A stretch of DNA of 32,224 nt, taken from the NCBI GenBank assembly GCA_900319705.1, contig ONPL01000012.1:1-32224 (forward strand), written 5' to 3'. The DNA comes from an uncultured Pseudomonadota bacterium. Its GTDB lineage: Bacteria > Pseudomonadota > Gammaproteobacteria > Enterobacterales > Succinivibrionaceae. The position numbers were made by a program, and so were the translations under genes. Shown here one piece after another: positions 8,669 to 26,122 of the stretch (its first letter is position 1; each line of letters begins with the position of its first letter). Under the pieces are notes generated by a model. That model did no database searches. It was not told the DNA's origin and saw only the letters and a program-made list of their open reading frames with translations.

Positions 8669-9805
8669 ATGAAAAATGTATTTATGTGTGTAAATTATCC
8701 AAAGTATAATCCAGCGATAGGGATATCTAAGAAAATACATACACAAATTGAAGCATTTCAGAAAATTGGATATGATGTAACGTATTCAGCATATTCAGAT
8801 ACAGGAATAGAAATCTTTGAAAATGATAAGTTAGTGGATTCATACAGATACAAAAGCCATATACCTCCTAAATTAATAAAACTTTATCGATATACATTAT
8901 TGCTTGATGCTTGTCGGAAGTATATTGAAAAAGGGGGAAAAAGCTATGATTTGGGTTTTGTACGTTGGAATGCCTTAACAAACAAATTCATAACAATTAT
9001 GAGAGCTATGGACAGTCGATGCAAAAAGATAATAATGGACTGTCATGGTTATCATCCAAGCTATAATCCACATACTATAAAAGGGAAATATATTCAGGTT
9101 TTTACAAATCTAAATTCTGATAAAATGCATCAGTATATTGATTTGTGTTTTCTGGAAGCAAAGGATAATGCTGTATGGGGAATTCCAGCTATGCCGATTG
9201 ATACTGGTATCGATGTGGATGCATATCTTCCTCATATATATAAGGGTGAAATAAATGAAATACATATGATCTCTGTAGCAAATGAACTGTCATATCATGG
9301 ATATGACAGAATTATTAGGGGTATTTCAGAGTATAAAGGAGATCGAGAGGTTTACCTTCATCTTGTAGGTAAAATGAGCAATAAAACCATCAATCTTGTT
9401 AAGAAGTTAAAGCTTGAAGAAAAAGTAATATTTCATGGATATCAAACTGGTGAATCATTAAGACAAATATATGAAGATTGTAATATCGGTGTAGGACCGT
9501 TGGCTCCTCATAGAATTGGTGGGAAACAAGGAACAGGAATTAAAACAAAAGAATATTTTGCTATTGGTCTGCCCTACTTCTTTGCTGGGCAAGAGTTACT
9601 GGTCCCAGATGATTTCCCTTTTGTATTAAAGTGTGAATCAAATGATAACCCTATTAATGTGGAATTAATTATAAAATTCTATGACAAAGTCAAAAATCAT
9701 ATGGAAATTCAAAACATCATGAGAGAATTTGCAAGAGAACACTTTTCATGGCCAAAAACATTCTTGAAAGCAGAGTCAATTCTTTTTAGTAATGTTCAGC
9801 AATAA
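8669..9805 (+). CDS. GT4-like glycosyltransferase
   Basis: A 378-residue GT-B glycosyltransferase. The N-terminal part (MKNVFMCVNYPKYNPAIGIS) has the Gly/Ser-rich loop that precedes acceptor binding. The C-terminal half shows IHMISVANELSYHGYDRIIRG, VYLHLVGKMS, VIFHGYQTGESLRQIYEDCN and KTKEYFAIGLPYFFAG, a weak form of the usual E-x7-E donor site, so the catalytic Glu pair cannot be assigned with confidence. GGCGGGA precedes the ATG. It is probably cytosolic and part of the repeat-unit assembly line between polymerase and pyruvyltransferase; the linkage made is unknown. Confidence 0.85.
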   Translation: MKNVFMCVNYPKYNPAIGISKKIHTQIEAFQKIGYDVTYSAYSDTGIEIFENDKLVDSYRYKSHIPPKLIKLYRYTLLLDACRKYIEKGGKSYDLGFVRWNALTNKFITIMRAMDSRCKKIIMDCHGYHPSYNPHTIKGKYIQVFTNLNSDKMHQYIDLCFLEAKDNAVWGIPAMPIDTGIDVDAYLPHIYKGEINEIHMISVANELSYHGYDRIIRGISEYKGDREVYLHLVGKMSNKTINLVKKLKLEEKVIFHGYQTGESLRQIYEDCNIGVGPLAPHRIGGKQGTGIKTKEYFAIGLPYFFAGQELLVPDDFPFVLKCESNDNPINVELIIKFYDKVKNHMEIQNIMREFAREHFSWPKTFLKAESILFSNVQQ

Positions 9806-9806
9806 A

Positions 9807-9952
9807 ATGAAACAAAAAAACATTTTCACGATATCGCATATTTATTGATTATGCTACCGATCGCTATATTGATAATTCTAAAATTACCTTCTACACTTAT
9901 TATACTGATGAAAACTATTTTTCATGAGAGGATATTTAAATGTCATGAATAA
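9807..9952 (+). pseudogene. Possible small membrane peptide, frameshifted
   Basis: An ATG at 9807 opens a frame that stops after 13 codons. After an A7 run (9814-9820) the neighbouring frame reads KHFHDIAYLLIMLPIAILII and continues hydrophobic to a stop at 9950. Adding one A would fuse the two into a 48-residue single-pass peptide. A shorter version could begin at ATG 9851 (33 codons) but has no ribosome binding site. It overlaps the start of the next gene. It could be a chance ORF or a remnant. Confidence 0.25.
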
Positions 9953-11975
9953 TCCAATAATTAGTATTATAGTTCCAGTGTACAATGTGGCTATATATTT
10001 ACGAGAATGTGTAGAAAGTCTTCTTAAGCAAGATATTCCAAACTATGAAATAATACTAGTAGATGATGGTTCTTCTGATGAATCAGGAAGTATTTGTGAT
10101 GATTATTCATTAGAATATGACAATATTCGTGTGATTCATAAAACAAATGGCGGCTTGGGAAGTGCGAGAAACGCTGGCATTAATGCAGCTAATGGGAAAT
10201 ATATTATTTTTATTGACAGTGATGATTATTTAGAGACTAATTGTCTCTGTAAGTTAGTAAATATTGCTGACAGAGACAGATTGGAAATTCTTCTTTATGG
10301 AACTCGTACTTTTTCAGATGATGGAGAACTGCCTCAAAGAGATTATTATAGAAGGACAAAAGGTTTTAATATTATACAACGTGGTAGAGATGCAATAGCA
10401 GATGCACAGCGGAATAATGAATACATTACTTCTGTTTGCCTTAGAATGTATAATCTTGAGTATTTTCGGTCGTTAAATTTAAAATTCAATGAAAGTATTA
10501 TTCATGAAGATGAAGATGTTTCTTTCCTTTCTTATGCTCAAGCGGAACGGACGAAAATTATACCAGACCAATTATATAATAGGAGACACAGGGGCGGTTC
10601 AATTTTAGCAACACGCAAGTATTATAAGATACTAGAAGGACAAGGGTATGCAATTCGCCAAGTAAGTCATTTTTTCGACAATTGTCAATGGCTTATTGAA
10701 GAAAAAAAAATATGCATGAAGTATTGTGAAATCAGGATGCTTGTTCTGCTTAAACTATATAGCGAACTAGATAAAGAGGAAAGAAAAGCAAATAAGAAAA
10801 CTCTTAAAGCTCTTTTACACGAAGAAAAAAGACATAGGCAATACTATTCACCTTTAATAATGCTTGGTGAAAAGATACCGGACGTCTTTATCATATTCAA
10901 TAAAGCGCGAAATAGAGCAATTAACTTAAAACCATTGGTAGCACTAGTTGTTAAAGAACCAGAGTCATTAATTACTGCGTTAGCAATTAGAGGTACAGGG
11001 AACAAAATATATCTTATTGGAACACCCCATCATGGTAACCTAGGTGATCATCTTATTACGGAATCAGAATTGCAGTTTTTTCGGTCTCGGATTCCAGAGA
11101 GAAAAGTTGTTGAATGCTCTATGCGTTTTGCGAGAGTATTCTTATCAAAAATTAAGAAGAAAATTAAGAATGAAGATATGATTGCAATTTCGGGAGGTGG
11201 TTGGCTCGGTTCTGAATGGAAAGTACATGAAGATTTTGTCAGAAAAATAATAATTACCTTTCCTCAAAATCGAATAATAATTATGCCGCAGACTGCTTAC
11301 TATAAAAATATTGATAAATATGTTGAGAACGGGGAGAAAATATATAGGACTCATCATGATCTTTATTTTTGTGCGCGAGAAGAAAACACATATACATTTA
11401 TTAGTGAATATGGTTTCTGCATAGATAAATCACATTTACTTCTTTTGCCAGACATGGCATTGTTATCAAATCGTTATCAATATTATGAACACAGTAATCA
11501 TTCTAGATCAGGAATAGGTGTTTGCTTTCGAGATGATATAGAGACATTAGTAGATTCTAATATGTTAGACCGAATTAAAAAAATTATATCGTTATTGGAC
11601 CAAAACTACAAAATTATAGAAACCAATATTCAATCAAAAGGAATAGGCAAAAATCAACGATCGGAAGTATTAAGGAATAAAATGAATGAAATAGCAGGAT
11701 TTAAAGTGATTGTTACTGATAGACTTCACGCAATGATTATGGCTGCATTGACAGGAACACCATGCATTGCATTTGATAATTCCACACATAAAGTTCATGG
11801 AGTGTACAATTGGATAAAGAGTTTAGAATATATACATTTCCTATCTAATATTGATAATCTTGAAAAAGACATTAGAGAATTTCTAAAGAATAATACGCAT
11901 TATCAATATAAACTAGCTAGAGATGATGAATACAAGGATCGTCTTATCAGCATATTTGTTAACGAGGTGAAATAA
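9945..11975 (+). CDS. Fusion of GT2 glycosyltransferase and polysaccharide pyruvyltransferase
   Basis: A bifunctional protein of about 676 residues. Residues 1 to about 300 are a GT-A family 2 glycosyltransferase: PIISIIVPVYN, Asp40-Asp41 in LVDDGSSDES and the DSD metal motif at residues 91-93. Residues from about 350 form a polysaccharide pyruvyltransferase domain (PF04230): YLIGTPHHGNLGDHLITES, AISGGGWLG, PQTAYY, the conserved TDRLHAMIMAALTGTPCIAF near residues 591-610 and NSTHKVHGVYNW. It should add one sugar and then a ketal-linked pyruvate from PEP, giving the polymer a negative charge. ATG 9945 gives the usual GT2 beginning and has GAGAGG upstream; ATG 9924 is in frame but has no ribosome binding site. 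The next gene starts 2 bases after the stop. Confidence 0.88.
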   Translation: MNNPIISIIVPVYNVAIYLRECVESLLKQDIPNYEIILVDDGSSDESGSICDDYSLEYDNIRVIHKTNGGLGSARNAGINAANGKYIIFIDSDDYLETNCLCKLVNIADRDRLEILLYGTRTFSDDGELPQRDYYRRTKGFNIIQRGRDAIADAQRNNEYITSVCLRMYNLEYFRSLNLKFNESIIHEDEDVSFLSYAQAERTKIIPDQLYNRRHRGGSILATRKYYKILEGQGYAIRQVSHFFDNCQWLIEEKKICMKYCEIRMLVLLKLYSELDKEERKANKKTLKALLHEEKRHRQYYSPLIMLGEKIPDVFIIFNKARNRAINLKPLVALVVKEPESLITALAIRGTGNKIYLIGTPHHGNLGDHLITESELQFFRSRIPERKVVECSMRFARVFLSKIKKKIKNEDMIAISGGGWLGSEWKVHEDFVRKIIITFPQNRIIIMPQTAYYKNIDKYVENGEKIYRTHHDLYFCAREENTYTFISEYGFCIDKSHLLLLPDMALLSNRYQYYEHSNHSRSGIGVCFRDDIETLVDSNMLDRIKKIISLLDQNYKIIETNIQSKGIGKNQRSEVLRNKMNEIAGFKVIVTDRLHAMIMAALTGTPCIAFDNSTHKVHGVYNWIKSLEYIHFLSNIDNLEKDIREFLKNNTHYQYKLARDDEYKDRLISIFVNEVK

Positions 11976-11976
11976 A

Positions 11977-13083
11977 ATGGCCTTTGTAAAACCCAAAAGA
12001 TTAATAGCAGTCAGTATCCCAATGCAGGCATGCAATCTAAAGTGCCATTATTGTTATATTTCTCAACTAAATGAATGGGAAAACAACAAAAAAAGGGGGA
12101 CTCTCGATCCTGTTTTGATTGAAAAGGCTTTTTCTGTTGAACGTCTAGAAGGACCCTGCATCATTAATTTAACGGGAAAAGGAGAAACACTTATTCCCAA
12201 AGAAATACCGGATATCATTGGGAGATTATTAAGACAAGGACATTACCTTGAAGTCGTAACAAATGGGACTTTAACTAACAGGTTTGAAGAGATTGCACGG
12301 TTTCCAAAAGAATGGTTATCAAGATTGGAATTCAAATTTTCTTTTCATTATTTGGAATTAAAAAAGCATGAGTGGATAGATCGTTTCTTTAATAATGTTC
12401 AAATGATGAAAAATGCAGGTTGTTCTTTTACTGTAGAACTTATGCCAAATGATGAACTAATTCCATATATAGATGAAATCAAAAAACTCTGCATAAACAA
12501 AGTGGGTGCATTATGTCATCTTACAATTGGGAGAGATGATACTAATGGACGAAAAATACTTACTAAACTTTCTATTGATGAGTATTTAAAAACATGGGAG
12601 CAGTTTAATTCAAACATGTTTCGATTTAAATATTCTGTATTTGATATTAAACGTAGAGAATTTTGTTATGCTGGTGCTTGGTCTCTATATGTTAATTTAT
12701 TAACTGGTGAGGCGCGCCAATGCTATGGTTGTTATGCTGATCAAAATATATATAATGATGTGAGCAAACCGATTAGGTTTAGACCTATAGGAAAATGTTG
12801 CAAACAGCCATTTTGTTATAATGCACATGCATTTATGTCACTTGGTGTTATACCAGAAGTTGATACGCCAACATATGCTGAAATACGTGATAGGGTTGAT
12901 CTTAATGGTGAACACTGGTTAAGTGAAGAAATCAGACAAGCTTTTTCAATAAAATTAGTTGATCAGAATCAAAGAATTAAAGGCATAAAGTGGATAAGCT
13001 ATTATACTTATTATCCAATCTATTGGGCTAATATCATAAAAATAAATTTCTCTAAAGGAATAAAGAAGGTGCTAAAGAAATAA
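11977..13083 (+). CDS. Radical SAM enzyme with Cys-rich C-terminus, in a capsule operon
   Basis: A 368-residue radical SAM protein. The 4Fe-4S motif C-x3-C-x2-C is at Cys19, Cys23 and Cys26 (ACNLKCHYC). The Gly-rich SAM loop appears as LTGKGETLI, followed by VVTNGT. The C-terminal part carries further cysteines at 230, 249, 252, 274, 275 and 280 (FCYAGAW, QCYGCY, GKCCKQPFC), similar in spacing style to auxiliary-cluster (SPASM/twitch) domains. Its ribosome binding site (GAGGTG) lies inside the end of the upstream gene. Function is not known: sugar modification of the repeat unit is suggested by context, while peptide modification would be the norm for SPASM proteins. The nearest precursor-like gene (1812) is 10 kb away. 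Confidence 0.82.
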   Translation: MAFVKPKRLIAVSIPMQACNLKCHYCYISQLNEWENNKKRGTLDPVLIEKAFSVERLEGPCIINLTGKGETLIPKEIPDIIGRLLRQGHYLEVVTNGTLTNRFEEIARFPKEWLSRLEFKFSFHYLELKKHEWIDRFFNNVQMMKNAGCSFTVELMPNDELIPYIDEIKKLCINKVGALCHLTIGRDDTNGRKILTKLSIDEYLKTWEQFNSNMFRFKYSVFDIKRREFCYAGAWSLYVNLLTGEARQCYGCYADQNIYNDVSKPIRFRPIGKCCKQPFCYNAHAFMSLGVIPEVDTPTYAEIRDRVDLNGEHWLSEEIRQAFSIKLVDQNQRIKGIKWISYYTYYPIYWANIIKINFSKGIKKVLKK

Positions 13084-13137
13084 TGACTATTTTATCAGAT
13101 AAAAATGTCAGTACTTAAGGAAATAGGAGATTACTAA

Positions 13138-14544
13138 ATGAGTCGAGAAAAAACTCTTGTTAAGAATACGGCAATTATTGCGTTAGGCAAAATATCCACT
13201 CAATTTGTAAGTTTTCTTCTTCTTCCTCTTTATACGGCAATTCTCACGACTGAAGAATATGGCATAGTAGACTTATTTACAACATATTCAAGATTGCTTT
13301 TGCCAATTCTTACATTAATGATTGAACACGGTGCATTTAGATATTTACTAAGCGCAGAAGTAGATAAACATTCTAAAGCCGAAATTGTCACAAATTCTTT
13401 TATAGTTATTACTGGAATGAATATTTTGTTTGCTTTGGGTGAATGTGTCCTTTTTCAGGTGGTTTATATCCCTTATTCATATTACTTAGTCCCAATTCTT
13501 ATCGCATCATCATATTCATCCTGGCTTTTACAAATAGCTCGTGGCGTTAAAATGACAACATTATATTCTTTTGGAAGTTTTGTTTCTGCAACAATCCATA
13601 TTATTATGAATGTTATATTAATTGCAGTATTGCATAAAGGTGTCCAAGGGATGTTAGTTGCGACTGTGATCGGACATGTATCATGTGCTTTTTTATTAAC
13701 TTGGAGATTAAAAATCTATCGCTATATAGATTTTTCGGTTATTAGTAAGAATACTATCAAAAGGATATTGACATATTCTATACCATTGATTCCGAATGCA
13801 ATTTCTCTATGGATTATTAACTCATCGGACCGAACTATTGTTAATTACTTTTTGGGAACGGAGGCTAATGGAGTATTAGCTGTTTCTCATAAATTTCCTA
13901 CGATTTTTCAGACTGTGTTTTCGATTTTTTTATTGTCGTGGCAAGAATTTGCGACTATTCATTGGAATGATCCAGATTGGGAAAGCTTTTTTAATAGTAT
14001 TTTTGAAAAGATATTCAAAATATTTTCTGCTATATGTATTATCATTATATCTGTATTACCATTTGTATTTCCTTTGCTAGTAAATAAATCATTTAGTCAA
14101 GCATACGATACAATACCGATCTATATGATAGCGATGTTGTTAAATATTTTAATTGGTTTAATAGGTGTTGTGTATGTAGCTACAAGAAATACTAAAGAAA
14201 TTGCTAAGACAACGATTGTTGCGGGAATTATCAATGTTATCGTTCATCTTATTATTATAAAATTTTTTGGTCTTTATGCAGCTGCATTATCAACTTTTAT
14301 TGCTTATTTATGTGCGGCTATTTATAGGTTTCATGATACAAAGAGAATTATACGGATTCACATGAGTGCAAAAACTATATGCCTTTTACTTTTCTCAATT
14401 ATAATTGCAATTTTTTGTTATTATCAAAATTCTTATATATGGAATGCATTTGGTATATTTTTTACTGTTTGCTTTTGTTTGTATTTTTGTAAAGATACAA
14501 TTTGTGTCATTAACCGACTCTTGAGAAAAGTACTAAAGAAATAA
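13138..14544 (+). CDS. Wzx-type flippase (MATE/MOP superfamily)
   Basis: A 468-residue polytopic membrane protein with about 12-14 hydrophobic helices. It begins MSREKTLVKNTAIIALGKIS, followed by the early motif FVSFLLLPLYTAILTTEEYG, typical of polysaccharide flippases (PF01943). It should move undecaprenyl-linked repeat units to the outer face of the membrane for the polymerase at 7488. An AGGAGA ribosome binding site stands before the ATG. Strongly AT-rich codons match the neighbouring serotype genes. Confidence 0.92.
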   Translation: MSREKTLVKNTAIIALGKISTQFVSFLLLPLYTAILTTEEYGIVDLFTTYSRLLLPILTLMIEHGAFRYLLSAEVDKHSKAEIVTNSFIVITGMNILFALGECVLFQVVYIPYSYYLVPILIASSYSSWLLQIARGVKMTTLYSFGSFVSATIHIIMNVILIAVLHKGVQGMLVATVIGHVSCAFLLTWRLKIYRYIDFSVISKNTIKRILTYSIPLIPNAISLWIINSSDRTIVNYFLGTEANGVLAVSHKFPTIFQTVFSIFLLSWQEFATIHWNDPDWESFFNSIFEKIFKIFSAICIIIISVLPFVFPLLVNKSFSQAYDTIPIYMIAMLLNILIGLIGVVYVATRNTKEIAKTTIVAGIINVIVHLIIIKFFGLYAAALSTFIAYLCAAIYRFHDTKRIIRIHMSAKTICLLLFSIIIAIFCYYQNSYIWNAFGIFFTVCFCLYFCKDTICVINRLLRKVLKK

Positions 14545-14571: not shown

Positions 14572-15063
14572 ATGTATACGAAACTTTTTATTTCTGTTAT
14601 ATTTACTATATTTTTAATACTTCTTGTTTATAAAAGAAAGAGGTTGATTATACCAATTACAGTAGCATATTTAGCTATTGTCATATATCTTGTTGCTTTT
14701 TCAAGCGGAAGAATTGATATGGGCGGTATAAGTATTAAATTCCCATTTCCTTTTTTCCGTGCCATTCTATCCCATCAATATGGTCCAACGACAAATAGAT
14801 CGTTTTTGAATATTATACTTTTTATTCCATTTGGTTATTTACTTCCGGCAATTATCTCCCTGCCTATAGTGCAAAAAAGCAAGCCAGATAGTAAACCAAG
14901 ATGGTTGATGATTGTATTTGCGGGATTCGCTTTTTCACTCCTCATCGAAACCAGCCAATTCATTTTTCGTTTCGGTGTTTTCGAATTGGATGATCTTGTA
15001 AAAAATACTATAGGTACAGTGATCGGATACATGATTTGGAGAGGATTAGAAAGGAATCAATAG
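14572..15063 (+). CDS. VanZ-like membrane protein
   Basis: A 163-residue protein with four to five hydrophobic segments. The VanZ-like signature (PF04892) is clear: NIILFIPFGYLLP, then LIETSQFIFRFGVFELDD and the final helix NTIGTVIGYMIW. VanZ relatives are common at the ends of Bacillota capsule clusters and some reduce lipoglycopeptide binding, but their biochemical role is not known. The start has only a weak ribosome binding site (ATAGAG); it follows the flippase by 27 bases and is probably the last gene of the AT-rich block. Confidence 0.85.
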   Translation: MYTKLFISVIFTIFLILLVYKRKRLIIPITVAYLAIVIYLVAFSSGRIDMGGISIKFPFPFFRAILSHQYGPTTNRSFLNIILFIPFGYLLPAIISLPIVQKSKPDSKPRWLMIVFAGFAFSLLIETSQFIFRFGVFELDDLVKNTIGTVIGYMIWRGLERNQ

Positions 15064-15250: not shown

Positions 15251-16318
15251 ATGAAGCAGCAAATCAAAATTAACACAAAAACTATTCTTGTTGCCGGCTG
15301 TCCGGGATTTATAGGATCATATTTGGTAATGCGTCTGTTCCGGGAAATGAATTCGGGCACTGTTGTCTCTTTAGACAACATGAATGATTACTACGATGTC
15401 AACCTGAAGGAATGGCGCCTGAAGCAGGTTGAGGAAACTGCTGCTGTTTCTCCTGTAAAGCATGTTTTTATTAAAGGCTCCATCGCAGACAAAAGCCTTG
15501 TGGATGAATTGTTTGAAACCTATCAATTCGATATCGTGGTAAACCTTGCTGCCCAAGCTGGCGTTCGGTATTCCATTGACCATCCGGATGTGTATATTGA
15601 GTCGAATATCATTGGGTTCTACAATATTCTCGAAGCCTGCCGCCATTATCCGGTGGAACATCTAGTGTACGCGTCATCTTCTTCCGTGTACGGTGGAAAC
15701 AAAAAAGTTCCGTTTTCTGTCGAGGATAAAGTGGACAATCCTGTATCCCTTTATGCAGCAACAAAAAAGAGCAATGAATTGCTTACCCATGCTTACAGCA
15801 AGCTTTATAACATTCCGAGTACAGGTCTTCGATTCTTTACGGTTTACGGGCCTGCCGGACGGCCGGACATGTTCTATTTTTTCGCTACCCGGAAGCTGGT
15901 GGCCGGGGAGAAGATTCGGATCTTTAACCATGGCAATATGAAACGAGATTTCACATACATTGACGATATAGTAGAAGGAATCATCCGTGTGATGCAGGGC
16001 GCGCCGGAAAAATCTGCTGATCCGGACGGTTTGCCAATTCCGCCGTATGCTGTTTACAATATCGGCAGCGGCCAGCCGGAAAACCTGTTGGACTATATCT
16101 CCACATTGCAGGAAGAACTTGTTCGTGCCGGCATTCTTCCTGCAGATTATGATTTTGAAGGCCACCGGGAGCTTGTCGGTATGCAGGCCGGAGATGTTCC
16201 GGTTACCTATGCGGACAGTTCCGCTCTGGAAGGTGATTACGGGTTTGTCCCGAAGATCGGAATCCGTGAAGGATTGCGAAAGTTCTGTGAATGGTATAAG
16301 GAGTATTATTGCTTATGA
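15251..16318 (+). CDS. UDP-glucuronate 4-epimerase (NAD-dependent, extended SDR)
   Basis: A 355-residue extended short-chain dehydrogenase/reductase. The NAD-binding G-x-x-G-x-x-G is at Gly16, Gly19 and Gly22 (AGCPGFIGS), with Cys17-Pro18 where relatives usually have Ala-Ala. The catalytic YxxxK is Tyr168/Lys172 in LYAATKKS, and the Ser-rich strand is ASSSSVYG. The segments NMNDYYDVNLKEWRL, RFFTVYGPAGRPDMFYF and MKRDFTYIDDIVEGI match UDP-glucuronate 4-epimerases (CapI / GAE type), which interconvert UDP-GlcA and UDP-GalA. This fits the UDP-glucose dehydrogenase three genes downstream. AAGGG precedes the ATG. It ends in an ATGA overlap with the next gene, so translation is probably coupled. 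Base composition is visibly more GC-rich than upstream. Confidence 0.9.
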   Translation: MKQQIKINTKTILVAGCPGFIGSYLVMRLFREMNSGTVVSLDNMNDYYDVNLKEWRLKQVEETAAVSPVKHVFIKGSIADKSLVDELFETYQFDIVVNLAAQAGVRYSIDHPDVYIESNIIGFYNILEACRHYPVEHLVYASSSSVYGGNKKVPFSVEDKVDNPVSLYAATKKSNELLTHAYSKLYNIPSTGLRFFTVYGPAGRPDMFYFFATRKLVAGEKIRIFNHGNMKRDFTYIDDIVEGIIRVMQGAPEKSADPDGLPIPPYAVYNIGSGQPENLLDYISTLQEELVRAGILPADYDFEGHRELVGMQAGDVPVTYADSSALEGDYGFVPKIGIREGLRKFCEWYKEYYCL

Positions 16319-17490
16319 GATGCAAAGAAAGATTTTATGAAATCTACGGAAATAATCCAGAGGGTTTATCTTTTTCTCCTTATCGGATATGCCCGATCGG
16401 TGCGCACAGCGACCATAACCTTGGGAAGATTACAGGGCTGGCGATTGATAAAGGAATTCATATCGCTTTCCGGCCGAAACAGAACGGCGTCATCGAGATG
16501 AGCAGCCTCCAGTTCCCGAAACGCGCGCAGTGGCATATCCGGGAAATTGGTGAGAAGACCGGAGACTGGGCGGATTATCTGCGCGGGGCAACATGGGCGC
16601 TGAGCAAAGAGCATATGCTGTCTGTCGGATTGTGCGGGGTGATTGAAGGGTCATTGCCGATCGGCGGTTTATCATCTTCCGCTGCTGTGATTCTGGCTTT
16701 CCTGAATGCTCTGGCGAGGGTGAACCGGATTCAGCTTTCTCCGCAGGAAATGATTAACATCGCATTTGACGCGGAGAAAAACTATGTGGGCGTTAATGTG
16801 GGAACGTTGGATCAAAGCTGTGAAGTACTCAGTAAGAAGAATCATCTGCTGTATCTGGATTGTGCGGATAACCGGTATGAACTGATTCCAACAAATCCGG
16901 CAATGAAACCGTATCGGATTGCGATCTTCTTTTCAGGGTTGGAACACAGCCTGGCCGGAAGCAAATACAATATGCGTGTGGATGAGCTGCGGGCCGGTGT
17001 ATATGCTTTACAAGCGTTTGCTGGACTGGATTACGGAAAATTCAATCAGGCGAACGCCCGGGATGTGAGCTGGAATATTTATCAGAAATATAAAGAGAAA
17101 CTGCCTGCTCCATGGGCGAAACGCTGTGAGCACTGGTATACCGAGTTCCGGCGGGTGGAAGCAGGAGCGGAGGCCTGGAGACGGGGAGATATTGAGGAAT
17201 ACGGAAGACTGTCCTTTGAATCCGGTTGGAGCAGTATTCACAATTGGGAGAGCGGCGCACCGGAACAGATCCGGCTGTATGAGATTATGCGGGAGACTTC
17301 CGGAATTTACGGCGGACGGTTCTCCGGCGCGGGTTTCAAAGGCTGCTGCATGGCGCTGATTAATCCGGACAAAGCCGGGGAGATTGAGGAACAGGTGGAA
17401 AAGAAATACCTGGACGCATTCCCGGAAATGAAGGGAAAGTACAGTTTCCATCTGTGTGAATCGGCAGATGGAATTGGTGGAGTATTATGA
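16315..17490 (+). CDS. Galacturonokinase-like GHMP kinase
   Basis: A 391-residue sugar kinase of the GHMP superfamily. Motif 1 is SPYRICPIGAHSDHN (residues 21-35), motif 2 GGLSSSAA (117-124) and motif 3 GGRFSGAGFKGCC (333-345). The motif-1 form C-P-x-G-A-H-x-D-H, rather than R-V-N-L-I-G-E-H-x-D-Y, together with the DWADYLRGA and FSGLEHSL segments, is what I remember of plant galacturonic acid kinase, not galactokinase. The likely reaction is GalA + ATP to GalA-1-phosphate; substrate specificity is inferred. The ATG overlaps the epimerase stop (ATGA) with AAGGAG upstream, and the end overlaps the next gene in the same way. The neighbours (epimerase, nucleotidyltransferase, UDP-Glc dehydrogenase) all point to UDP-GalA. 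Confidence 0.8.
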   Translation: MRCKERFYEIYGNNPEGLSFSPYRICPIGAHSDHNLGKITGLAIDKGIHIAFRPKQNGVIEMSSLQFPKRAQWHIREIGEKTGDWADYLRGATWALSKEHMLSVGLCGVIEGSLPIGGLSSSAAVILAFLNALARVNRIQLSPQEMINIAFDAEKNYVGVNVGTLDQSCEVLSKKNHLLYLDCADNRYELIPTNPAMKPYRIAIFFSGLEHSLAGSKYNMRVDELRAGVYALQAFAGLDYGKFNQANARDVSWNIYQKYKEKLPAPWAKRCEHWYTEFRRVEAGAEAWRRGDIEEYGRLSFESGWSSIHNWESGAPEQIRLYEIMRETSGIYGGRFSGAGFKGCCMALINPDKAGEIEEQVEKKYLDAFPEMKGKYSFHLCESADGIGGVL

Positions 17491-18225
17491 AGTGTTTGAT
17501 ATTGGCAGCCGGATACGCGACCCAGCTTTATCCGCTGACTGAGAATTTCCCGAAGCCGTTGCTGAAGGTTCAGGACAAAACAATTCTGGACTGGCTGCTG
17601 GAAGACATTGACCGGAGCGGATGCATTGACCAATATATCGTGATCACAAATCACAGGTTTTCGGATCATTTCAGGCAATGGGCAGAGAAACATCCTCTGC
17701 CCATTACTGTGCTGGATGATGGAACAGAAACCAATGAGACAAGGCTTGGCGCGGTACGGGATGTCCAGTTTGCAATCGATGAACTGAAACTGGAAGATGA
17801 TCTGCTGGTGATTGCAGGGGATAATCTTCTGAACTTTTCCCTGACCGGATTTATAGCATACCAGAAGCGGAAGAATACGACATGTATCATGCGCTACTGG
17901 GAACCGGATATGAATAAGCTTCATAAAACCGGTGTGGCCGAGGTGGATGAGAATGACAGGATTCTACGTATGGAAGAAAAACCTGCACATCCCCGTTCCA
18001 ACTGGTGTACGCCGCCTTTCTACATTTACCCGTGCTTCCGATATTCCGCTTGTGAAGAAAGGCATAGAAGAGGGATGCGGAACAGACGCACCGGGAAGTT
18101 TCATTTCCTGGCTGTCCGCACAGACAGCTGTTCATGCTTACGAGATGCCCGGGAGAAGGTTTGACATCGGGAATCTTGCCAGCTATGAGGAAGTACAGAA
18201 CAGTTACCGCGGAATAGAAAAATGA
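17487..18225 (+). pseudogene. Sugar-1-phosphate nucleotidyltransferase, frameshifted and with an altered active site
   Basis: The first 180 residues are a nucleotidyltransferase (PF00483): MKCLILAAGYATQLYPLTEN, FPKPLLKV, DDLLVIAGDNL and RMEEKPAHPRSNW. After PPFYIY, near 18029, the frame breaks. The rest of the family fold (TRASDIPLVKKG, GTDAPGSFISWL, EMPGRRFDIGN) continues in another frame to a stop at 18223-18225. Adding back two bases (AC in a TACACC context) restores a 246-residue protein. The signature Arg of G-x-A-T-R-L-x-P-L is Gln13 here (CAG, one transition from CGG), a second hit at a catalytic position. Intact, it would have made an NDP-sugar from the product of the kinase next door. 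Left as it is, a 225-residue out-of-frame product is expected. It overlaps both neighbours by four bases. Confidence 0.8.
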
Positions 18226-18245
18226 AGGAAGGATATCATAATTCC

Positions 18246-19478
18246 ATGAATATTGCAGTTGCGGGAACCGGGTATGTGGGCCTTTCACTGGCTGCCCTTC
18301 TGGCTCAGCATAACCATGTGGTTGCTGTGGATATTGTTCCTGAAAAGGTTGACAGGATTAATGCATGGCAATCTCCGATACACGATGAGTATATTGACAA
18401 ATTCTTTGCTGAGCATAATGAAAGAAGACTGGATCTGACAGCTACGATGGATGCTGTGGGAGCGTATGCGAAGGCAGATTATGTAATTGTTGCCGCACCG
18501 ACTAATTATGATCCGCAGAAAAACTTTTTTGATACCAGTGCGGTTGAATCGGTAATTGAGCTGGTTCTTGCCAATAACGATCACTGTTCAATCGTGATCA
18601 AAAGCACAATCCCTGTCGGTTATACGGAACGTATCCGGGGAAAATACAAGTGTGACCGGATTCTTTTCAGCCCGGAATTTCTGCGGGAGAGCAAAGCATT
18701 GTATGACAATCTCTTTCCTTCCCGCATTATTGTCGGATGTGACGGAAAATGCAGGGAAAGAGCGGAAACATTCGCAAAGCTTCTTGTTGACGGCGCTGAG
18801 AAAAAAGATATAGATGTTCTGTTTATGGGGTTCACGGAAGCGGAGGCCGTAAAACTGTTCTCAAATACTTATCTTGCCCTTCGGGTTTCTTTCTTCAATG
18901 AACTGGACACATATGCGGAGATCAAAGGACTCAACACAAAGGACATTATCGAAGGCGTCGGTCTGGATCCGCGGATTGGCAGGCACTATGCAAATCCATC
19001 CTTCGGATACGGCGGTTACTGCCTTCCGAAGGATACCAAGCAGCTGCTGGCAAACTACCAGGATGTTCCGCAGAATATGATGACAGCCATTGTTGAATCC
19101 AACCGTACCAGAAAGGATTTTATCGCGGATCGCGTACTGGAAAGAGCCGGATACTACACAGCCAACAGTATGTGGAACGCAGAAAAAGAACGCCCGATCA
19201 CAATCGGTGTTTACAGACTGACAATGAAAGCCAACAGCGATAATTTCCGGCAAAGCAGTGTGCAGGGCGTTATGAAACGCATCAAGGCGAAAGGCGCTAC
19301 GGTAATTATCTATGAACCGACGCTGGAAGACGGAACGACCTTTTTCGGATCGCTGGTCGTAAACGATATTGAACGGTTCAAGCGGAGCTGTGACGCTATT
19401 ATTGCCAACCGGTATGATTCGATTCTGGATGATGTTCAGGAAAAGGTATATACACGGGACATTTTCAGACAGGATTAA
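18246..19478 (+). CDS. ugd: UDP-glucose 6-dehydrogenase
   Basis: A 410-residue member of the UDP-glucose/GDP-mannose dehydrogenase family, oxidising UDP-glucose to UDP-glucuronate with two NAD. The NAD loop GTGYVGLS starts at Gly7, STIPVGYT and [14 protein letters not shown] follow, then the central helix [19 protein letters not shown]. The catalytic Cys is Cys259 in [13 protein letters not shown]. The C-terminal UDP-binding domain ends at residue 410. ATG 18246 gives the usual beginning [12 protein letters not shown] and has AAGGAAGG upstream; an in-frame ATG at 18222 overlaps the previous stop (ATGA) and is an alternative. It supplies the substrate of the epimerase at 15251. Confidence 0.92.
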
Positions 19479-19534
19479 CATGTTTATTTGCAAAAAAAGA
19501 TTTCATATTATAGAACCTGTACAGGGGGAACAAC

Positions 19535-22500
19535 ATGAAGAGAAAAGTATTCCCGGCTTTGCTTCTGGGATTATTTATATTATTGATTAACACTGTATCT
19601 GCTGATCTGAGCACCAATCTGCAGATCCGGAAAGAAATAAATCCCAAAAATAAAAAGACCGCAAGTGTGACATATACTGACGCTGCAGGTAATCCGGTGA
19701 TTGCTGACGACAAGGGATACGCCATTGTGCGGTATGCATATACGACAGGAAACAAAATTGCAAAAACAGTATATCTGGATCCGGAAGGCAATCTGATCAA
19801 CTGTATTGATGGATATGCGCAGAAAAATTGTACTTATGGCGTAGGCGGACCGACAAAAACCGAATATCTGGACGCAGACGGACATCTTGTGAACGGGCCG
19901 GAAGGATATGCCCGCCAGGTGATCAAGTATACATACGGAAAGCATAAAAGCACCTGGGAATATGACGCGGATGGAAATCCGGTAAATCTGCACCGGATTT
20001 CGGAGCATAAGGCGGACAAGCCGGGACTCATTACCAAAGACGGCTGGTATGATACGGAAGGCAACCCGGCTGCGGGCCCGGAAGGATATGCCTGGGTGGA
20101 ATACAAATACCGCGGATCGAAGGTTTCCCGTACCGCTTATTACAACGCGGACGGAACACTGTATTACTATGCCAAGGAAGGATATGCCGTCAAGGAATAC
20201 ACATATGAAAACTCAAACATCCGGGAACTGAACTATTACGGAGCGGACGGGGAACTGATTGCCGGACCTAAAGGATACGCCCGTGCTGCTTACAGGTATA
20301 TCAGGCGCAAGAATGACCTTGCGCGATGGATCACATATTACAACGCTGACGGAAGCCTGTTTTTTACTGCCGATGGATACTGCGGTATTGAGCAGAGCCG
20401 CACCATGAAGGGGCAGGTTACAGACGAGAGGTATTACATCAGCGAGAATGAACGCGGATTTAACTCGGACGGGTACAGCCGGGTGGCCCGGAGCTATACA
20501 CAGCGCGGAAAGCTTGCCGGCCAGATCTTTTATGACGAAAAGGATCATCTGGTGGTTTCCGAATCGGAAGGATATGCCGTGATGCGGAATACATACAACG
20601 GCAATTACCTGACGAGGACGGAGTATTTTGACGAAAACAGCAAGCCGATGCCTGGCCCGGACGGATATTTCGCAATCCAGTATAAATATAAAAACAGAGT
20701 CAAGACTGAAGCAATCCTGTATGGTACAGATGGCACAACACTGGTTAACGGCAGCAAAGGATACGCCCGGATTGTTTATCAGAACGATAATAAGGGAAAC
20801 TGCATCAGCAAGTCTTATTATGACGCGGATGGAAACCGGTTTATTATCGGAAACAACGCGGATGAAATACGGTACGAATGGAAAGGGAAAAACCAGATCA
20901 GCGAGAGTTACTGGGCAAACGGGGAAGCGGTTGTAAACAATAAAGGATACCATAAGATTGAAAGGGAATATACCGGGAACGGAGATATCAGTGCGGAACA
21001 CTATCTGGACATTAAGGGCAAACCTGTAACATCAACAGAAGGCTACGCAAAAACTGAATATATCTACAATAGCAAGGGAAAGGTCATGGCTACGCTTTAC
21101 TATGATGAAGCGGGAGACCTGACACTGACCCCGGGGAAAGAATACGCGTATGTACGGACAATATCGGAAAAGGACAAGAAGCTGCTTGAGGATCCGGATT
21201 ATGTAGAAGAAGAGGAACCGGACGAAGAGGTAAGTGACGAAGACGATGAAGAAACATTCATCGATAATATAGAGGACGATGAAGATCAAAGAACCGGGCA
21301 CAGCGAGGAACCCACTGTAAGTGAAGACATGCAGGAAGAACAGCCTGCGGCAGCGGGGGTCACATATATTGAATATTATGGAACAGACAGAAAGCTGATG
21401 AACCTGTCTGCAGGATACGCGTACGTTGTACGGCGGACCGATAAAAAAGGAAACACAATAGAGCAGGCCTATTACAATACGGACAGTGAAAAAGTACTGA
21501 CAGCAAACGGATATCACTTTTTCAGACAGGAATATGACGAAAAAGATCTTCCGACAACTGTGGCCTATTTTGGGATAAACGGGGAACAGGTAATTAATTT
21601 AAAGGAAAAATATCACCGGATTGAACGGACTTATCGGGATAAAAAGCATCTGACCAGTGAAGCGTGGTTCGATGAAAATGATGAACCGATGACGATGGGG
21701 GACACCTATGTCCGAATCGAACGGGATTTTGACGCAAGAGGAAATACCACAGCGGAACGAACCTACGGAGCGGATGGAGAACTTATTGCACGGGGAAACG
21801 GCTATGACGAGGTCCGGCGGATATTCAACGAACAGAACAAGGCAATCCGGATTGAGTATTATCTGGGCGGAAAACTTTTCCGGACGGCAGGCGGATCTGC
21901 CATAGCGGAGAGAGAGTACGATGAAAAAGGCCGGATGGTCCAGGAACGGTATTATGACGAGAACGGCGAGAAGACGCTGCTTCCGGACGGATATCACGCG
22001 TATACGCAGGTATACGGAGAAGATGGATTCGTAGCTGAAACTGCGTACTACGGTGTGAACGGAGAGCGGGTCATCAACACAAAGGATAAATATCACCGTA
22101 TAGAACGGACATACCTGGATAAGGATCATATTACAAGCGAAGCATGGTTCGACGAAAACAATGAACCGATGACAATGGGAGATACGTATGTCCGATATGA
22201 ACGAGACTATGATGAGAGAAAGAACGCTATTGCAATAAGGACATACGGATTGAACGGGAAACTGATTGCGAGAAAAGACGGATATGATGAGGTCCGAAGG
22301 ATATTTAACGAACTAAACCAGGCAACCCGAATCGAGTACTATCTGGAAGGGCAGCTTGTATTGTTGAAGAATGGTTATGCTGCCCTGGAACGGGAATATG
22401 ACGGGAAGGGAAATGTCAGCCTGGAAAGATACTTCGATGAGAACGGTGAAAAGGCTTTACTTCCGAACGGATATCATGCTGTAAGACAGGTATTTGATGA

Positions 22501-25500
22501 GAAAGGGTTTCCGATATCTGTAGCTTATTTTGGAATAAACGGAGAACGTGTAAATAATAAAAACACAAAGTATCACCGGATTGAACGTACTTTTCTTGAT
22601 ATAAAGCATCTAACCAGCGAAACGTGGTTCGATGAAAATGATGAACCGATTACAATGGGGGATACCTATGTTCGGATCGAGCGGGACTTTGACGCAAAAG
22701 GAAATACCATAGCGGAACGAACCTTCGGAGCGGATGGAAAACTTATTGCACGGGAAAATGGTTACGACGAGGTTCGGCGGACATTCAACGAACAAAACAA
22801 GGCAATCCGGATTGAGTATTATCTGGGCGGAAAACTTTTCCGGATGGCAGGCGGATATGCCATAGCGGAGAGAGAGTACGATGAAAAAGGCCGGATGGTC
22901 CAGGAACGGTATTACGATGAAAATGAAGAAAAGATGCTTCTTCCGGACGGATATTACGCATATATCCAGGTATACGGAGAAGACGGATTCGTAGCTGAAA
23001 CTGCGTACTTCGGCGTAAACGGAGAACGGGTTATCAATAAAAACACGAAATATCACCGGGTAGAACGGACATATCTGGATCAGGACCACATTACGAGCGA
23101 AGCGTGGTTCAACGAGAACAATGAACCGATGACGATGGAGGACACCTATGTCCGATTTGAACGAGACTATGATGAGAGAAAGAATGTTATTGCAATACGG
23201 ACATACGGACCGGACGGAAAAGAGATAGCCCGGAAAGACGGATATGACGAGAGGAGACAGGAGTACGACGGACAGAACAGAGTGATCCGGATTGAGTACT
23301 ATCTGGGCGGAAAACTGTTCCGGATGGCAGGCGGATACGCTGCACTGGAGCGAGAGTATGATGAGAAGGGAAATATTAGCCTGGAACGGTATTTCGATGA
23401 AAACGGCGAGAAGACGCTGCTTCCGAACGGATATCATTTCTATACGCAGAAGATCGGAGAGAAAGGGCTTCCGACAAGTGTAGCTTACTTTGGTGCAAAC
23501 GGAGAACGAGTGATCCATAAAAAGACAAAGTATCACAGGATTGAGCGGACATACAGGGACAAGAACCATCTGACCAGTGAAGCATGGTTCGATGAAAATG
23601 ATGAACCGATGACGATGGGGGATACCTATGTCCGGATCGAACGGGACTTTGACGCAAAAGGAAATACCATAGCGGAACGAACTTTTGGAGCGGATGGGAA
23701 ACTTATTGTACGGGAAAATGGTTACGACGAGGTTCGGCGGACATTCAACGAACAGAACAAGGCAATCAGATATGAATACTATCTGGACGGGAAGCTGGTA
23801 TTGCGGGCAGGCGGATACGCAATTCTGGAAAGAGACTACGACGAAATAGGACGGATGATCCAGGAACGGTATTACGATGAAAACGGAGAAAAGATGCTTC
23901 TTCCGGATGGATATCACGCGTATACGCAGGTATACGGGGAAGACGGGTTCGTAGCGGAAACTGCTTACTTTGGTGTAAATGGTGAACGGGTAATCAACGC
24001 AGACACAAAATATCACCGGATAGTGCGGACATACCTGGATCAGGATCATTATACCAGTGAAGCGTGGTTCGACGAGAACAATGAACCGATGACGCTGGAG
24101 GATACGTATGTCCGTATTGAGCGTGATTATGATGAAAGGAAGAACGCGATTGTAATACGGACCTATGGAGCAGACGGAAAACTGATTGCGCGGAAAGACG
24201 GATACGATGAACTGCGAAGGACATTCGACGAACACAATCAGGCTGTCAGATTTGAGTACTATCTTGGCGGAAAACCAGTATTGCTGAAGAATGGTTATGC
24301 TGCATTGGAACGGGAATATGACGGGAAAGGAAATGTCAGCCTGGAACGGTACTTCGATGAAAACGGCGAGAAAACGCTGCTTCCGAACGGGTATCATTTC
24401 TATACGCAGGTGATTGGAGAGAAAGGGCTTCCGACTTCGGTGGCATATTTTGGCGTAAACGGAGAGTATGTAATCAACCTAAAAACAAAGTACCACCGAA
24501 TTGAGCGGACCTATCGGGATAAAAACCATGTGACCAGTGAAGCGTGGTTTGATGATAACGACGAACCGATGACGATGGGAGATACCTATGTTCGGATTGA
24601 ACGGGATTTTGACGCAAAAGGAAATACTATAGCAGAACGAACCTTCGGAGCGGACGGGAAACTTATTGCACGGGAAAACGGTTACGACGAGGTTCGGCGG
24701 ACATTCAACGAACAGAACAAGGCAATCAGATATGAATACTATCTGGACGGGAAGCTGGTATTGCGGGTAGGCGGATATGCCATCCTGGAGAGGGATTATG
24801 ACGAAAAAGGACGGGCGATCCAGGAACGGTATTACGATGAAAACGGAGAAAAGATGCTTCTTCCGGATGGATATCACGCTTATACGCAGGTATATGGAGA
24901 AGACGGATTCGTAGCTGAAACTGCGTACTTCGGTGTGAATGGAGAACGGGTCATCAACACAAAGGATAAATATCACCGGATAGAAAGGACATATCTGGAT
25001 CAGGATCACTATACCAGTGAAGCATGGTTTGACGAAAACGACGAACCGATGACAATGGGAGATACCTATGTCCGATATGAGCGTGATTATGATGAGAGGA
25101 AGAACGTTATTGCAATACGGACATACGGACCGAACAGTGAACTGATTGCCCGGAAAGACGGATATGACGAGAGAAAACAGAAATATGACGAGCAGAACAG
25201 AGTGATCCGGGTTGAGTACTATCTGGGCGGAAAACTGTTCCGGATGGCGGGCGGATACGCCGCGCTGGAGCGGGAATATGATGAGAATGGGAATATCAGC
25301 CTGGAACGGTATTTCGATGAAAACGGCGAGAAGACGCTGCTTCCGAACGGATATCATTTCTATACGCAGGTAATCGGAGAGAAAGGGCTTCCGATATCGG
25401 TGGCTTACTTCGGTATAAACGGAGAAGGGGTCATCAACAAAAAGACGAAGTACCACCGGATTGAGCGGACATACCGGGACAAAAAGCATCTGACCAGCGA

Positions 25501-26122
25501 AGCGTGGTTTGATGATAAGGACGAACCGATGACGATGGGGGACACCTATGTCCGGATCGAACGGGACTTTGACGCAAAAGGAAATACCACAGCAGAAAGG
25601 ACCTACGGAGCGGACGGAGAACCTATCGCAAGAAAGAGCGGATACGACGAGGTTCGGCGGACATTCAACGAACAGAACAAGGCAATCCGGATTGAGTATT
25701 ATCTGGGCGGTAAACCTTTCATGATGGAGGGTGGATATGCCGCACTGGAACGGGAATACGACGAAAATGGAAATATGATCTGTGAATGGTATTTCAATGA
25801 AAATCTGGAGCCTGCGCCATGTAAACAGGGGTATGAAGCAATTAAAAAGGAATATAATGACCAAAGACAGGTGGTCCGGGAAATCTATAAAAATTACACA
25901 GGTCTTCCTATGACTGATAGTAAAGGTGTGTATCAGACGGTATATGAATATAATGAAAATGGGCAAGTGATTATGGAACAGTATTATGATAAAAACGGTA
26001 ACCCAATGGCAAACAGTGATGGTTTTATTGCTGTTGAAAAACAATACAATGAAAAGGGAAAACTGAAAAGTGAAGAAGGAATTGCTCCGGAAAGCGAAGA
26101 CGAAAAACATGGGTCGGATTGA
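19535..26122 (+). CDS. Giant secreted repeat protein (YD/RHS-like beta repeats)
   Basis: A 2195-residue protein with a clear signal peptide (MKRKVFPALLLGLFILLINT, cleavage after VSA near residue 23) and an AGGGGG ribosome binding site. Residues about 30-550 hold divergent repeats of the form G-Y-A-x-x-x-Y-x-Y..., Y-Y-D-A-D-G. Residues about 552-605 are an acidic Glu/Asp-rich linker. From residue 692 a very regular array follows: five 32-residue units make 160 residues, and 160-residue blocks alternate between two types. Each 32-mer has the plan [GKT]-Y-x6-Y/F-D-x-K/R-x-x7-Y/W-F/Y-D-x-N-x-x-x. The C-terminus (residues about 2100-2195) is divergent and hydrophilic, without LPXTG, SLH or choline-binding motifs and with no toxin-like domain. 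A surface or matrix role is likely from the signal peptide and location. The family was not recognised with certainty; RHS/YD-repeat and MORN-like proteins are the nearest look-alikes. Confidence 0.85.
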   Translation: MKRKVFPALLLGLFILLINTVSADLSTNLQIRKEINPKNKKTASVTYTDAAGNPVIADDKGYAIVRYAYTTGNKIAKTVYLDPEGNLINCIDGYAQKNCTYGVGGPTKTEYLDADGHLVNGPEGYARQVIKYTYGKHKSTWEYDADGNPVNLHRISEHKADKPGLITKDGWYDTEGNPAAGPEGYAWVEYKYRGSKVSRTAYYNADGTLYYYAKEGYAVKEYTYENSNIRELNYYGADGELIAGPKGYARAAYRYIRRKNDLARWITYYNADGSLFFTADGYCGIEQSRTMKGQVTDERYYISENERGFNSDGYSRVARSYTQRGKLAGQIFYDEKDHLVVSESEGYAVMRNTYNGNYLTRTEYFDENSKPMPGPDGYFAIQYKYKNRVKTEAILYGTDGTTLVNGSKGYARIVYQNDNKGNCISKSYYDADGNRFIIGNNADEIRYEWKGKNQISESYWANGEAVVNNKGYHKIEREYTGNGDISAEHYLDIKGKPVTSTEGYAKTEYIYNSKGKVMATLYYDEAGDLTLTPGKEYAYVRTISEKDKKLLEDPDYVEEEEPDEEVSDEDDEETFIDNIEDDEDQRTGHSEEPTVSEDMQEEQPAAAGVTYIEYYGTDRKLMNLSAGYAYVVRRTDKKGNTIEQAYYNTDSEKVLTANGYHFFRQEYDEKDLPTTVAYFGINGEQVINLKEKYHRIERTYRDKKHLTSEAWFDENDEPMTMGDTYVRIERDFDARGNTTAERTYGADGELIARGNGYDEVRRIFNEQNKAIRIEYYLGGKLFRTAGGSAIAEREYDEKGRMVQERYYDENGEKTLLPDGYHAYTQVYGEDGFVAETAYYGVNGERVINTKDKYHRIERTYLDKDHITSEAWFDENNEPMTMGDTYVRYERDYDERKNAIAIRTYGLNGKLIARKDGYDEVRRIFNELNQATRIEYYLEGQLVLLKNGYAALEREYDGKGNVSLERYFDENGEKALLPNGYHAVRQVFDEKGFPISVAYFGINGERVNNKNTKYHRIERTFLDIKHLTSETWFDENDEPITMGDTYVRIERDFDAKGNTIAERTFGADGKLIARENGYDEVRRTFNEQNKAIRIEYYLGGKLFRMAGGYAIAEREYDEKGRMVQERYYDENEEKMLLPDGYYAYIQVYGEDGFVAETAYFGVNGERVINKNTKYHRVERTYLDQDHITSEAWFNENNEPMTMEDTYVRFERDYDERKNVIAIRTYGPDGKEIARKDGYDERRQEYDGQNRVIRIEYYLGGKLFRMAGGYAALEREYDEKGNISLERYFDENGEKTLLPNGYHFYTQKIGEKGLPTSVAYFGANGERVIHKKTKYHRIERTYRDKNHLTSEAWFDENDEPMTMGDTYVRIERDFDAKGNTIAERTFGADGKLIVRENGYDEVRRTFNEQNKAIRYEYYLDGKLVLRAGGYAILERDYDEIGRMIQERYYDENGEKMLLPDGYHAYTQVYGEDGFVAETAYFGVNGERVINADTKYHRIVRTYLDQDHYTSEAWFDENNEPMTLEDTYVRIERDYDERKNAIVIRTYGADGKLIARKDGYDELRRTFDEHNQAVRFEYYLGGKPVLLKNGYAALEREYDGKGNVSLERYFDENGEKTLLPNGYHFYTQVIGEKGLPTSVAYFGVNGEYVINLKTKYHRIERTYRDKNHVTSEAWFDDNDEPMTMGDTYVRIERDFDAKGNTIAERTFGADGKLIARENGYDEVRRTFNEQNKAIRYEYYLDGKLVLRVGGYAILERDYDEKGRAIQERYYDENGEKMLLPDGYHAYTQVYGEDGFVAETAYFGVNGERVINTKDKYHRIERTYLDQDHYTSEAWFDENDEPMTMGDTYVRYERDYDERKNVIAIRTYGPNSELIARKDGYDERKQKYDEQNRVIRVEYYLGGKLFRMAGGYAALEREYDENGNISLERYFDENGEKTLLPNGYHFYTQVIGEKGLPISVAYFGINGEGVINKKTKYHRIERTYRDKKHLTSEAWFDDKDEPMTMGDTYVRIERDFDAKGNTTAERTYGADGEPIARKSGYDEVRRTFNEQNKAIRIEYYLGGKPFMMEGGYAALEREYDENGNMICEWYFNENLEPAPCKQGYEAIKKEYNDQRQVVREIYKNYTGLPMTDSKGVYQTVYEYNENGQVIMEQYYDKNGNPMANSDGFIAVEKQYNEKGKLKSEEGIAPESEDEKHGSD
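21608..25927 (+). repeat. 480-bp tandem repeat array (nine blocks) inside the giant repeat protein
   Basis: The codons for Y-H-R-[IV]-[EV]-R-T recur at 21611, 22091, 22571, 23051, 23531, 24011, 24491, 24971 and 25451, spaced exactly 480 bases with no insertion or deletion. Odd blocks carry DFDAKGNTIAERTFGADGK-type text (21728, 22688, 23648, 24608, 25568) and even blocks YDERKNAIAIRTYG-type text, so the true period is 960 bp. The ninth block is complete for about four of its five subunits and then diverges. Some stretches, for example 23740-23860 and 24700-24820, are almost identical in DNA, which suggests recent duplication or gene conversion. Confidence 0.92.

What the first reader, a model, noticed from the sequence alone, without database searches (positions are those of the whole stretch)
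19535..26122. Three-tier repeat architecture in a 2195-residue secreted protein
Seen directly: 32-residue units in groups of five give 160-residue blocks. The blocks recur every 480 bases exactly, nine times, with no indel. A and B block types alternate, so the highest period is 320 residues (960 bp). Sequence-level regularity this strict over more than 4 kb, in a protein with a signal peptide inside a capsule locus, points to a long filament- or solenoid-like surface molecule. I do not recognise a named family; RHS/YD repeats are only a resemblance.
Basis: partly seen in the sequence, partly recalled or inferred. Interest (0 to 1): 0.78.

Follow-up and report, generated by a model that had tools for sequence, protein, structure and literature searches.

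The report
Secreted YD-like ribbon in capsule locus
A gut/rumen bacterium's capsule gene cluster encodes a very long secreted protein built from about 60 copies of a 32-residue beta-hairpin; the same uncharacterised repeat also forms the outer part of many bacterial immune-type receptors, so it looks like a widespread but unnamed surface building block.

Summary
ORF 19535-26122 (2195 aa, signal peptide, good ribosome site) holds nine 160-residue blocks (aa 610-2049) in exact register, five 32-residue units each, A/B alternating. Copies differ by at least 12% in DNA, share no exact repeat over 88 bp, and have dN/dS 0.10-0.30 with dS 0.46-1.4, so this is an old array under purifying selection, not an assembly artefact. 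AlphaFold gives a confident (pLDDT 94.5) continuous beta-strip, two strands per unit; the best solved matches are Rhs/teneurin YD shells (Z 10-12), but not superposable as a closed shell (TM 0.1-0.3). No Pfam/NCBIfam model fits this protein; simpler relatives pass the RHS/YD-repeat cut-offs. A genome scan found 43 related loci in many phyla: a secreted class, mainly rumen/gut Clostridia, repeatedly beside capsule regulators (CpsB, Wzz/BY-kinase, LytR-CpsA-Psr), and a receptor class with the repeats behind TIR, nSTAND1 or kinase domains. Best reading: an extended, non-toxin YD-like ribbon exported with the exopolysaccharide as matrix or surface scaffold/adhesin. New variant of a known kind; function inferred. 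The contig may be mis-binned: Bacillota-like inside a Pseudomonadota bin.

The parts
19523..19529 (+). ribosome-binding site AGGGGGA, 5 nt before the ATG
   Evidence: read in the sequence
19535..26122 (+). 2195-aa secreted repeat protein
   Evidence: open frame; single copy in its own genome
19535..19603 (+). signal peptide aa 1-23 (KRK n-region, hydrophobic core, VSA|DLS)
   Evidence: sequence; the only hydrophobic stretch of the protein, aa 5-23; same 'A[ED]LSTNLxxRKEINP' start in rumen Clostridia relatives
19622..21169 (+). N-terminal strip, aa 30-545, irregular diverged repeats
   Evidence: AF2 pLDDT mostly over 90, paired strands; 58-60% identical to L064 paralogues
21182..21361 (+). acidic disordered linker, aa 550-609
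   Evidence: pLDDT 24-34; net charge -25 over aa 546-609; same position in relatives
21362..25681 (+). regular array, nine 160-aa blocks, aa 610-2049
21362..21841 (+). block A1
21842..22321 (+). block B1
22322..22801 (+). block A2
22802..23281 (+). block B2
23282..23761 (+). block A3
23762..24241 (+). block B3
24242..24721 (+). block A4
24722..25201 (+). block B4
25202..25681 (+). block A5
25682..26119 (+). C-terminal diverged units aa 2050 to about 2177 and a short acidic tail; no toxin or anchor domain found
3787..5172 (+). priming sugar transferase (Bac_transf)
5432..14544 (+). EPS genes: glycosyltransferases, TupA-like ATP-grasp, Wzy-type polymerase, GT2 + pyruvyl transferase fusion, radical SAM, Wzx-type flippase
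14572..15063 (+). VanZ-like membrane protein
15251..19478 (+). sugar-nucleotide genes: NDP-sugar epimerase, GHMP (galactokinase-like) kinase, nucleotidyltransferase, UDP-glucose dehydrogenase
   Evidence: the epimerase is 69% identical to the one near the repeat gene in L067
26276..28610 (+). GT4 glycosyltransferase and NTP_transf_5 protein downstream

Best explanation
It is a Sec-exported, non-toxin relative of RHS/YD-repeat proteins that forms a long continuous single beta-strip (two strands per 32-residue unit; an N-terminal strip of about 16 units, a flexible acidic linker, then about 49 units) and is made together with a Wzy-dependent capsule/exopolysaccharide. Outside the cell it most likely stays in or on the polysaccharide layer as an extended scaffold/adhesin ribbon, its open sheet offering repeated aromatic and charged side chains to glycan or to other ribbons. 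Length is tuned by duplication or loss of whole blocks, so frame and sheet geometry are kept. Shown: the array, purifying selection, predicted fold, signal peptide, recurrent linkage to capsule regulators. Inferred: export, location, glycan association, scaffold role.
For: Array and selection. Fold: pLDDT 94.5 and Rhs/teneurin best matches; N half the same. Signal peptide and no other membrane segment or recognisable anchor. Capsule genes around it and around independent relatives: L065 CpsB+Wzz+BY-kinase+LCP, L067 epimerase+Wzz+BY-kinase+LCP+CpsB, L079/L080 Wzz/BY-kinase+DegT+priming transferase, L090 BY-kinase+LCP+Wzz. Whole-block turnover: L065 has one 160-aa block followed by 126-127-aa blocks with the same unit order minus one unit; L068 and L072 use 127, L069/L071/L075 64, L064 160. 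Conserved N half against variable array.
Against: No experiment. Capsule linkage is seen in only 5 of 20 secreted-class loci (several are truncated; L064, L066, L069, L072, L078, L084 show none in the DNA held), and p is only 0.016-0.035. No known glycan-binding module, no LPXTG or SLH anchor found. TM to Rhs shells is only 0.1-0.3, so the global shape is uncertain. The receptor class shows the repeats need not have anything to do with capsule.
Confidence: 0.48

Rival explanations
1. Recognition module: the ribbon is a ligand-binding surface (for glycan, phage or neighbour), as in the TIR/nSTAND/kinase proteins; the secreted form is a soluble receptor or decoy.
For: The same repeats follow a single membrane helix behind TIR (at least 16 loci), nSTAND1 (3) or kinase (2) domains, so some 32-residue ribbons very likely work as sensor ectodomains.
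Against: No positional hypervariability was seen: blocks are under purifying selection. No signalling partner is encoded in the window.
Confidence: 0.25
2. EPS assembly factor: the protein acts at the membrane or wall to guide polymerisation, export or LCP-dependent attachment of the polysaccharide and is not a structural part of the matrix.
For: Gene order with Wzz, BY-kinase, CpsB and LCP in L065, L067 and L090.
Against: 2195 residues of near-identical strip with variable length does not look like a stoichiometric enzyme partner; many relatives lack these neighbours.
Confidence: 0.12
3. RHS-type polymorphic toxin carrier (closed shell around a C-terminal toxin).
For: Fold similarity to Rhs shells.
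Against: No RHS core or C-terminal toxin domain found by Pfam or NCBIfam; the ORF ends in a short acidic tail; the secreted relatives inspected end without a toxin-sized extension.
Confidence: 0.03
4. Assembly artefact or decaying array.
For: A MAG contig; relative L064 does show broken junctions.
Against: Block DNA identity at most 88%, longest exact repeat 88 bp, uninterrupted frame, dN/dS 0.10-0.30.
Confidence: 0.02

Closest known systems
Rhs/YD-repeat proteins (T6SS Rhs effectors, Tc BC shells, WapA-like)
   Same: Tandem YD-type beta-hairpins forming a long continuous strip; best structural matches; relatives pass the RHS_repeat and YD_repeat cut-offs
   Different: 32-residue unit with higher-order blocks, no hit of P0001 itself to those models, no RHS core, autoprotease or toxin found, secreted by a signal peptide, TM to closed shells 0.1-0.3
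Teneurins and teneurin-like protein (TLP)
   Same: YD strip; N-half model aligns to TLP 9ifo over 314 residues at 6.3 A, Z 10.6; teneurins are type 2 membrane proteins (PMC5898268), the topology also predicted for the TIR class here
   Different: No EGF, NHL or Ig-like domains recognised; bacterial; the secreted class has no membrane anchor
OspA-type single-layer beta-sheet and MORN repeats
   Same: Open sheet of hairpin repeats; L072 reaches the MORN_2 cut-off
   Different: Weaker structural match (OspA Z 5.2 at best with the array model); different unit length and consensus

Membership tests
RHS/YD-repeat superfamily | Sequence match to RHS_repeat (PF05593) or YD_repeat_2x (TIGR01643) | tested here: not met
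   P0001: neither among the hits at E <= 0.01. Relatives with the same unit exceed the cut-offs: L070, L074, L085, L098 (TIGR01643), L069, L070, L074, L086, L088, L098, L106 (PF05593)
RHS/YD-repeat superfamily | Continuous beta-hairpin strip of the YD type | tested here: met
   Array model: Z 10-12 to Rhs/teneurin chains over 343-410 residues, rmsd 11-20 A; N-half model Z 9-11, for example 221 residues at 4.6 A to Tse15
RHS/YD-repeat superfamily | Strip closed into a shell | tested here: inconclusive
   TMq at most 0.28 to shells; coordinates not available for inspection
Rhs polymorphic toxins | RHS core domain and C-terminal toxin domain | tested here: not met
   No such hit in Pfam or NCBIfam; short acidic C-terminus
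Wzy-dependent capsule locus component | Recurrent linkage with capsule genes in independent genomes | tested here: met
   Window, L065, L067, L079/L080, L090
Cell-wall anchored surface adhesin | LPXTG, SLH or other anchor | tested here: not met
   No such Pfam hit; C-terminus lacks LPXTG by reading
Anti-phage defence proteins | Match to PADLOC models | tested here: not met
   P0001: none; TIR and nSTAND relatives: weak hits, mostly in the effector domains
Extracellular protein | Protein found outside the cell | not testable with these tools
   Signal peptide only

The most novel reading that the evidence does not exclude
One 32-residue YD-like ribbon is a general extracytoplasmic recognition/assembly part of bacteria: plugged behind a membrane helix onto TIR, STAND or kinase domains it makes single-pass receptors across phyla, and exported with capsule it makes giant matrix ribbons, possibly meeting the receptor ribbons edge to edge or through the same ligand. 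This would be a bacterial parallel to teneurins and Toll-type receptors.
Probability: 0.15. Interest if true: 0.82.

Novelty: new variant of a known kind. Interest (0 to 1): 0.52.

Why it matters
Giant secreted capsule-linked proteins of uncultured rumen Clostridia are mostly unannotated, and YD/RHS repeats are usually read as toxin shells. Here the same kind of strip, without a toxin, is tied to capsule operons and, in other bacteria, to TIR/STAND/kinase proteins with one membrane helix. If right, it gives a fold and testable functions to a repeat found in many bacterial phyla and lacking a profile of its own, and it offers candidate ectodomains for bacterial TIR receptors, whose ligands are an open question.

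Tried and rejected
PDB sequence search of P0001 and of profiles A4 and A2: nothing below E 0.04; teneurins appear at E 0.05-0.4 with A2. Plasmid, phage and IMG/VR searches: no relatives. First genome-contig scan with the single protein found none; the three-sequence alignment A3 found 43. Pfam hits MRP-S27 and TFR_dimer and NCBIfam nigerythrin on P0001 are taken as chance (no stretch passes alone). Assembly artefact rejected. Toxin carrier rejected for lack of core or toxin domains. Literature searches for TIR plus YD/RHS repeats or capsule plus RHS repeats returned nothing relevant in the open-access library; this does not exclude papers outside it. Wzz, epimerase and NTP-transferase matches in L068, L086, L103, L105, L106 were too short or generic to count as capsule markers. 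Whether the strip closes into a tube could not be settled because model coordinates are not exposed.
Full report
OBSERVATION. The frame 19535-26122 is open for 2195 codons, starts behind a good ribosome site and encodes a signal peptide followed by no other hydrophobic segment. Self-comparison gives 82-83% identity at lags of 320 and 640 residues, 66-67% at 160, 480 and 800 and 17% at 32. Nine 160-residue blocks fill aa 610-2049 (21362-25681) without an indel; A and B types alternate.

NOT AN ARTEFACT. The best DNA identity between blocks is 88%, the longest exact repeat is 88 bp, dN/dS among like blocks is 0.10-0.30 and dS 0.46-1.4. Synonymous sites are well diverged while block length is unchanged: an old array whose length and protein sequence are held by selection. 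By contrast the closest relative's array (L064) is broken at junctions where pieces of the repeat are skipped, which looks like mis-assembly of more similar copies.

FOLD. AlphaFold on four blocks with 22 window/locus sequences gave pLDDT 94.5, pTM 0.68, all beta, two strands per unit, no break. Strand starts are spaced 32, 33, 32, 32, 31, and one hairpin per block has longer strands (8+8) and a two-residue turn, so the five-unit period has a structural counterpart. The N-terminal half has the same strip up to aa 545, then disorder at 550-609. Foldseek ranks Rhs effectors first (E 5.7e-23) but with TM 0.14-0.28; VIA-align gives Z 10-12 to Rhs and teneurin chains over 343-410 residues at rmsd 11-20 A, against 5.2 for OspA. 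The N half aligns to TLP over 314 residues at 6.3 A and to Tse15 over 221 at 4.6 A. So the strip is of the YD kind; its global curvature is unknown. For repeats the tool warns that Z under about 13 may mean only a common arrangement; the support is that Rhs and teneurin chains fill the top of both lists and that relatives match YD profiles in sequence.

FAMILY. No Pfam or NCBIfam model fits P0001. The scan with a three-sequence alignment found 43 loci: Clostridia (many from rumen or gut), Planctomycetes, Lentisphaeria, Bacteroidales, Spirochaetes, Proteobacteria, Chlorobi, Coatesbacteria, WOR-3. Consensus of 228 32-residue units: GYA-x5-YDExGNxIxEx-YFDxDGKPV-x4 (the unit set was picked by pattern, so it is approximate). 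Simple members exceed the RHS_repeat and YD_repeat_2x cut-offs. Hence a diverged YD branch.

TWO CLASSES. (a) Secreted: signal peptide plus array. The rumen Clostridia share an A-E-L-S-T-N-L-x-x-R-K-E-I-N type start after the signal peptide with the window protein. The N-terminal half corresponds along its length (58-60% identity to L064's two copies); the array differs in super-period: 160 (L064), 127-128 (L065-L068, L072), 64 (L069/L071/L075). L065 shows one 160-aa block followed by 126-127-aa blocks of the same units less one: blocks are gained and lost as wholes. (b) Receptor-like: TIR, then exactly one predicted membrane helix, then repeats; also nSTAND1 (with C-terminal PDZ in L096, L098) and kinase forms.

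CAPSULE LINK. The window carries a Wzy-type EPS set plus UDP-sugar genes. Independent secreted-class loci sit next to CpsB, Wzz, BY-kinase, LCP, DegT or priming transferase genes: L065, L067, L079/L080, L090. 5 of 20 secreted-class loci against 0 of 23 others, p = 0.016, or 0.035 counting L079/L080 once. The first count I made (15 against 27, p = 0.0035) used a looser division of the loci and is superseded. The window was left out because it prompted the test.

WHERE THE CONTIG BELONGS. The bin's order includes a gammaproteobacterium (G319 = JABXHY010000050.1), but no other genome of the family searched carries the repeats, the UDP-glucose dehydrogenase is 70-73% identical to Bacillota plasmid copies while the bin holds a second one at 58%, and the IS5/IS3 elements match mainly Bacillota plasmids, not the family. 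The epimerase has equally close relatives in both groups (69% in Clostridia; 71% in the family), and the family also has a UDP-glucose dehydrogenase at 68%. Mis-binning or a recent transfer from a rumen clostridium is likely; the tools cannot decide. It matters because a Gram-positive cell would release the protein straight into the wall or capsule.

MECHANISM. My best reading, 0.48: a non-toxin YD-like ribbon exported together with the polysaccharide, serving as an extended scaffold/adhesin in or on the capsule, its length adjusted by block turnover. Array, selection, predicted fold, signal peptide and linkage are shown; export, location, binding and role are inferred. The recognition-module rival (0.25) rests on the receptor class and can be true at the same time.

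Noticed in passing
L070, L073, L074, L076, L077, L081, L082, L083, L085, L086, L088, L091, L094, L097, L100, L101, L102: TIR domain, then one membrane helix, then the same 32-residue repeats, with a conserved 'YYxDYVxxxGVPxGIxxL' stretch after the helix; several with a C-terminal PDZ-like end, several in tandem paralogues (L073, L101).
   Followed up: partly
L096:5451-10103, L098:4053-9563, L099:5865-10088, L103:5171-9019, L104:6672-9782: The repeats behind nSTAND1 NTPase domains (with PDZ in L096, L098) or Ser/Thr kinase domains.
   Followed up: partly
window 1-32224: The contig looks Bacillota-like (IS elements, UDP-glucose dehydrogenase, repeat gene) inside a Pseudomonadota genome bin; probably mis-binned or recently transferred.
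   Followed up: partly
L065:3929-6190, L066:4291-6699, L067:10974-13173: Next to the long repeat gene there are a small secreted protein of about 170-200 aa and a short repeat protein with a long Pro/Thr linker: a possible three-gene secreted module.
   Followed up: no
window 27486-28610; L064:2-4068 and 11134-11475: NTP_transf_5 protein in the window; L064 has radical SAM, an HPrK-like protein, a signal-peptidase-like protein, an ABC transporter and PqqD around the repeat genes; L080 has a similar HPrK-like/ABC pair. A peptide-modification-type cluster may accompany the repeat genes.
   Followed up: no
window 14572-15063; L068:3345-4805: A VanZ-like gene in the EPS locus; in L068 a VanZ domain is fused behind the repeats.
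   Followed up: no
L064:5086-11137: Array broken into several frames at junctions that skip pieces of the repeat: probable MAG mis-assembly of very similar blocks.
   Followed up: yes
window 22610-24397 and 24479-26149, minus strand: Long antisense open frames (595 and 556 aa) inside the array; L065 shows one of 1517 aa. Most likely a side effect of repeat codon composition.
   Followed up: no
window 11977-13083: A radical SAM protein inside the EPS genes next to the GT2-pyruvyl transferase fusion; substrate unknown.
   Followed up: no
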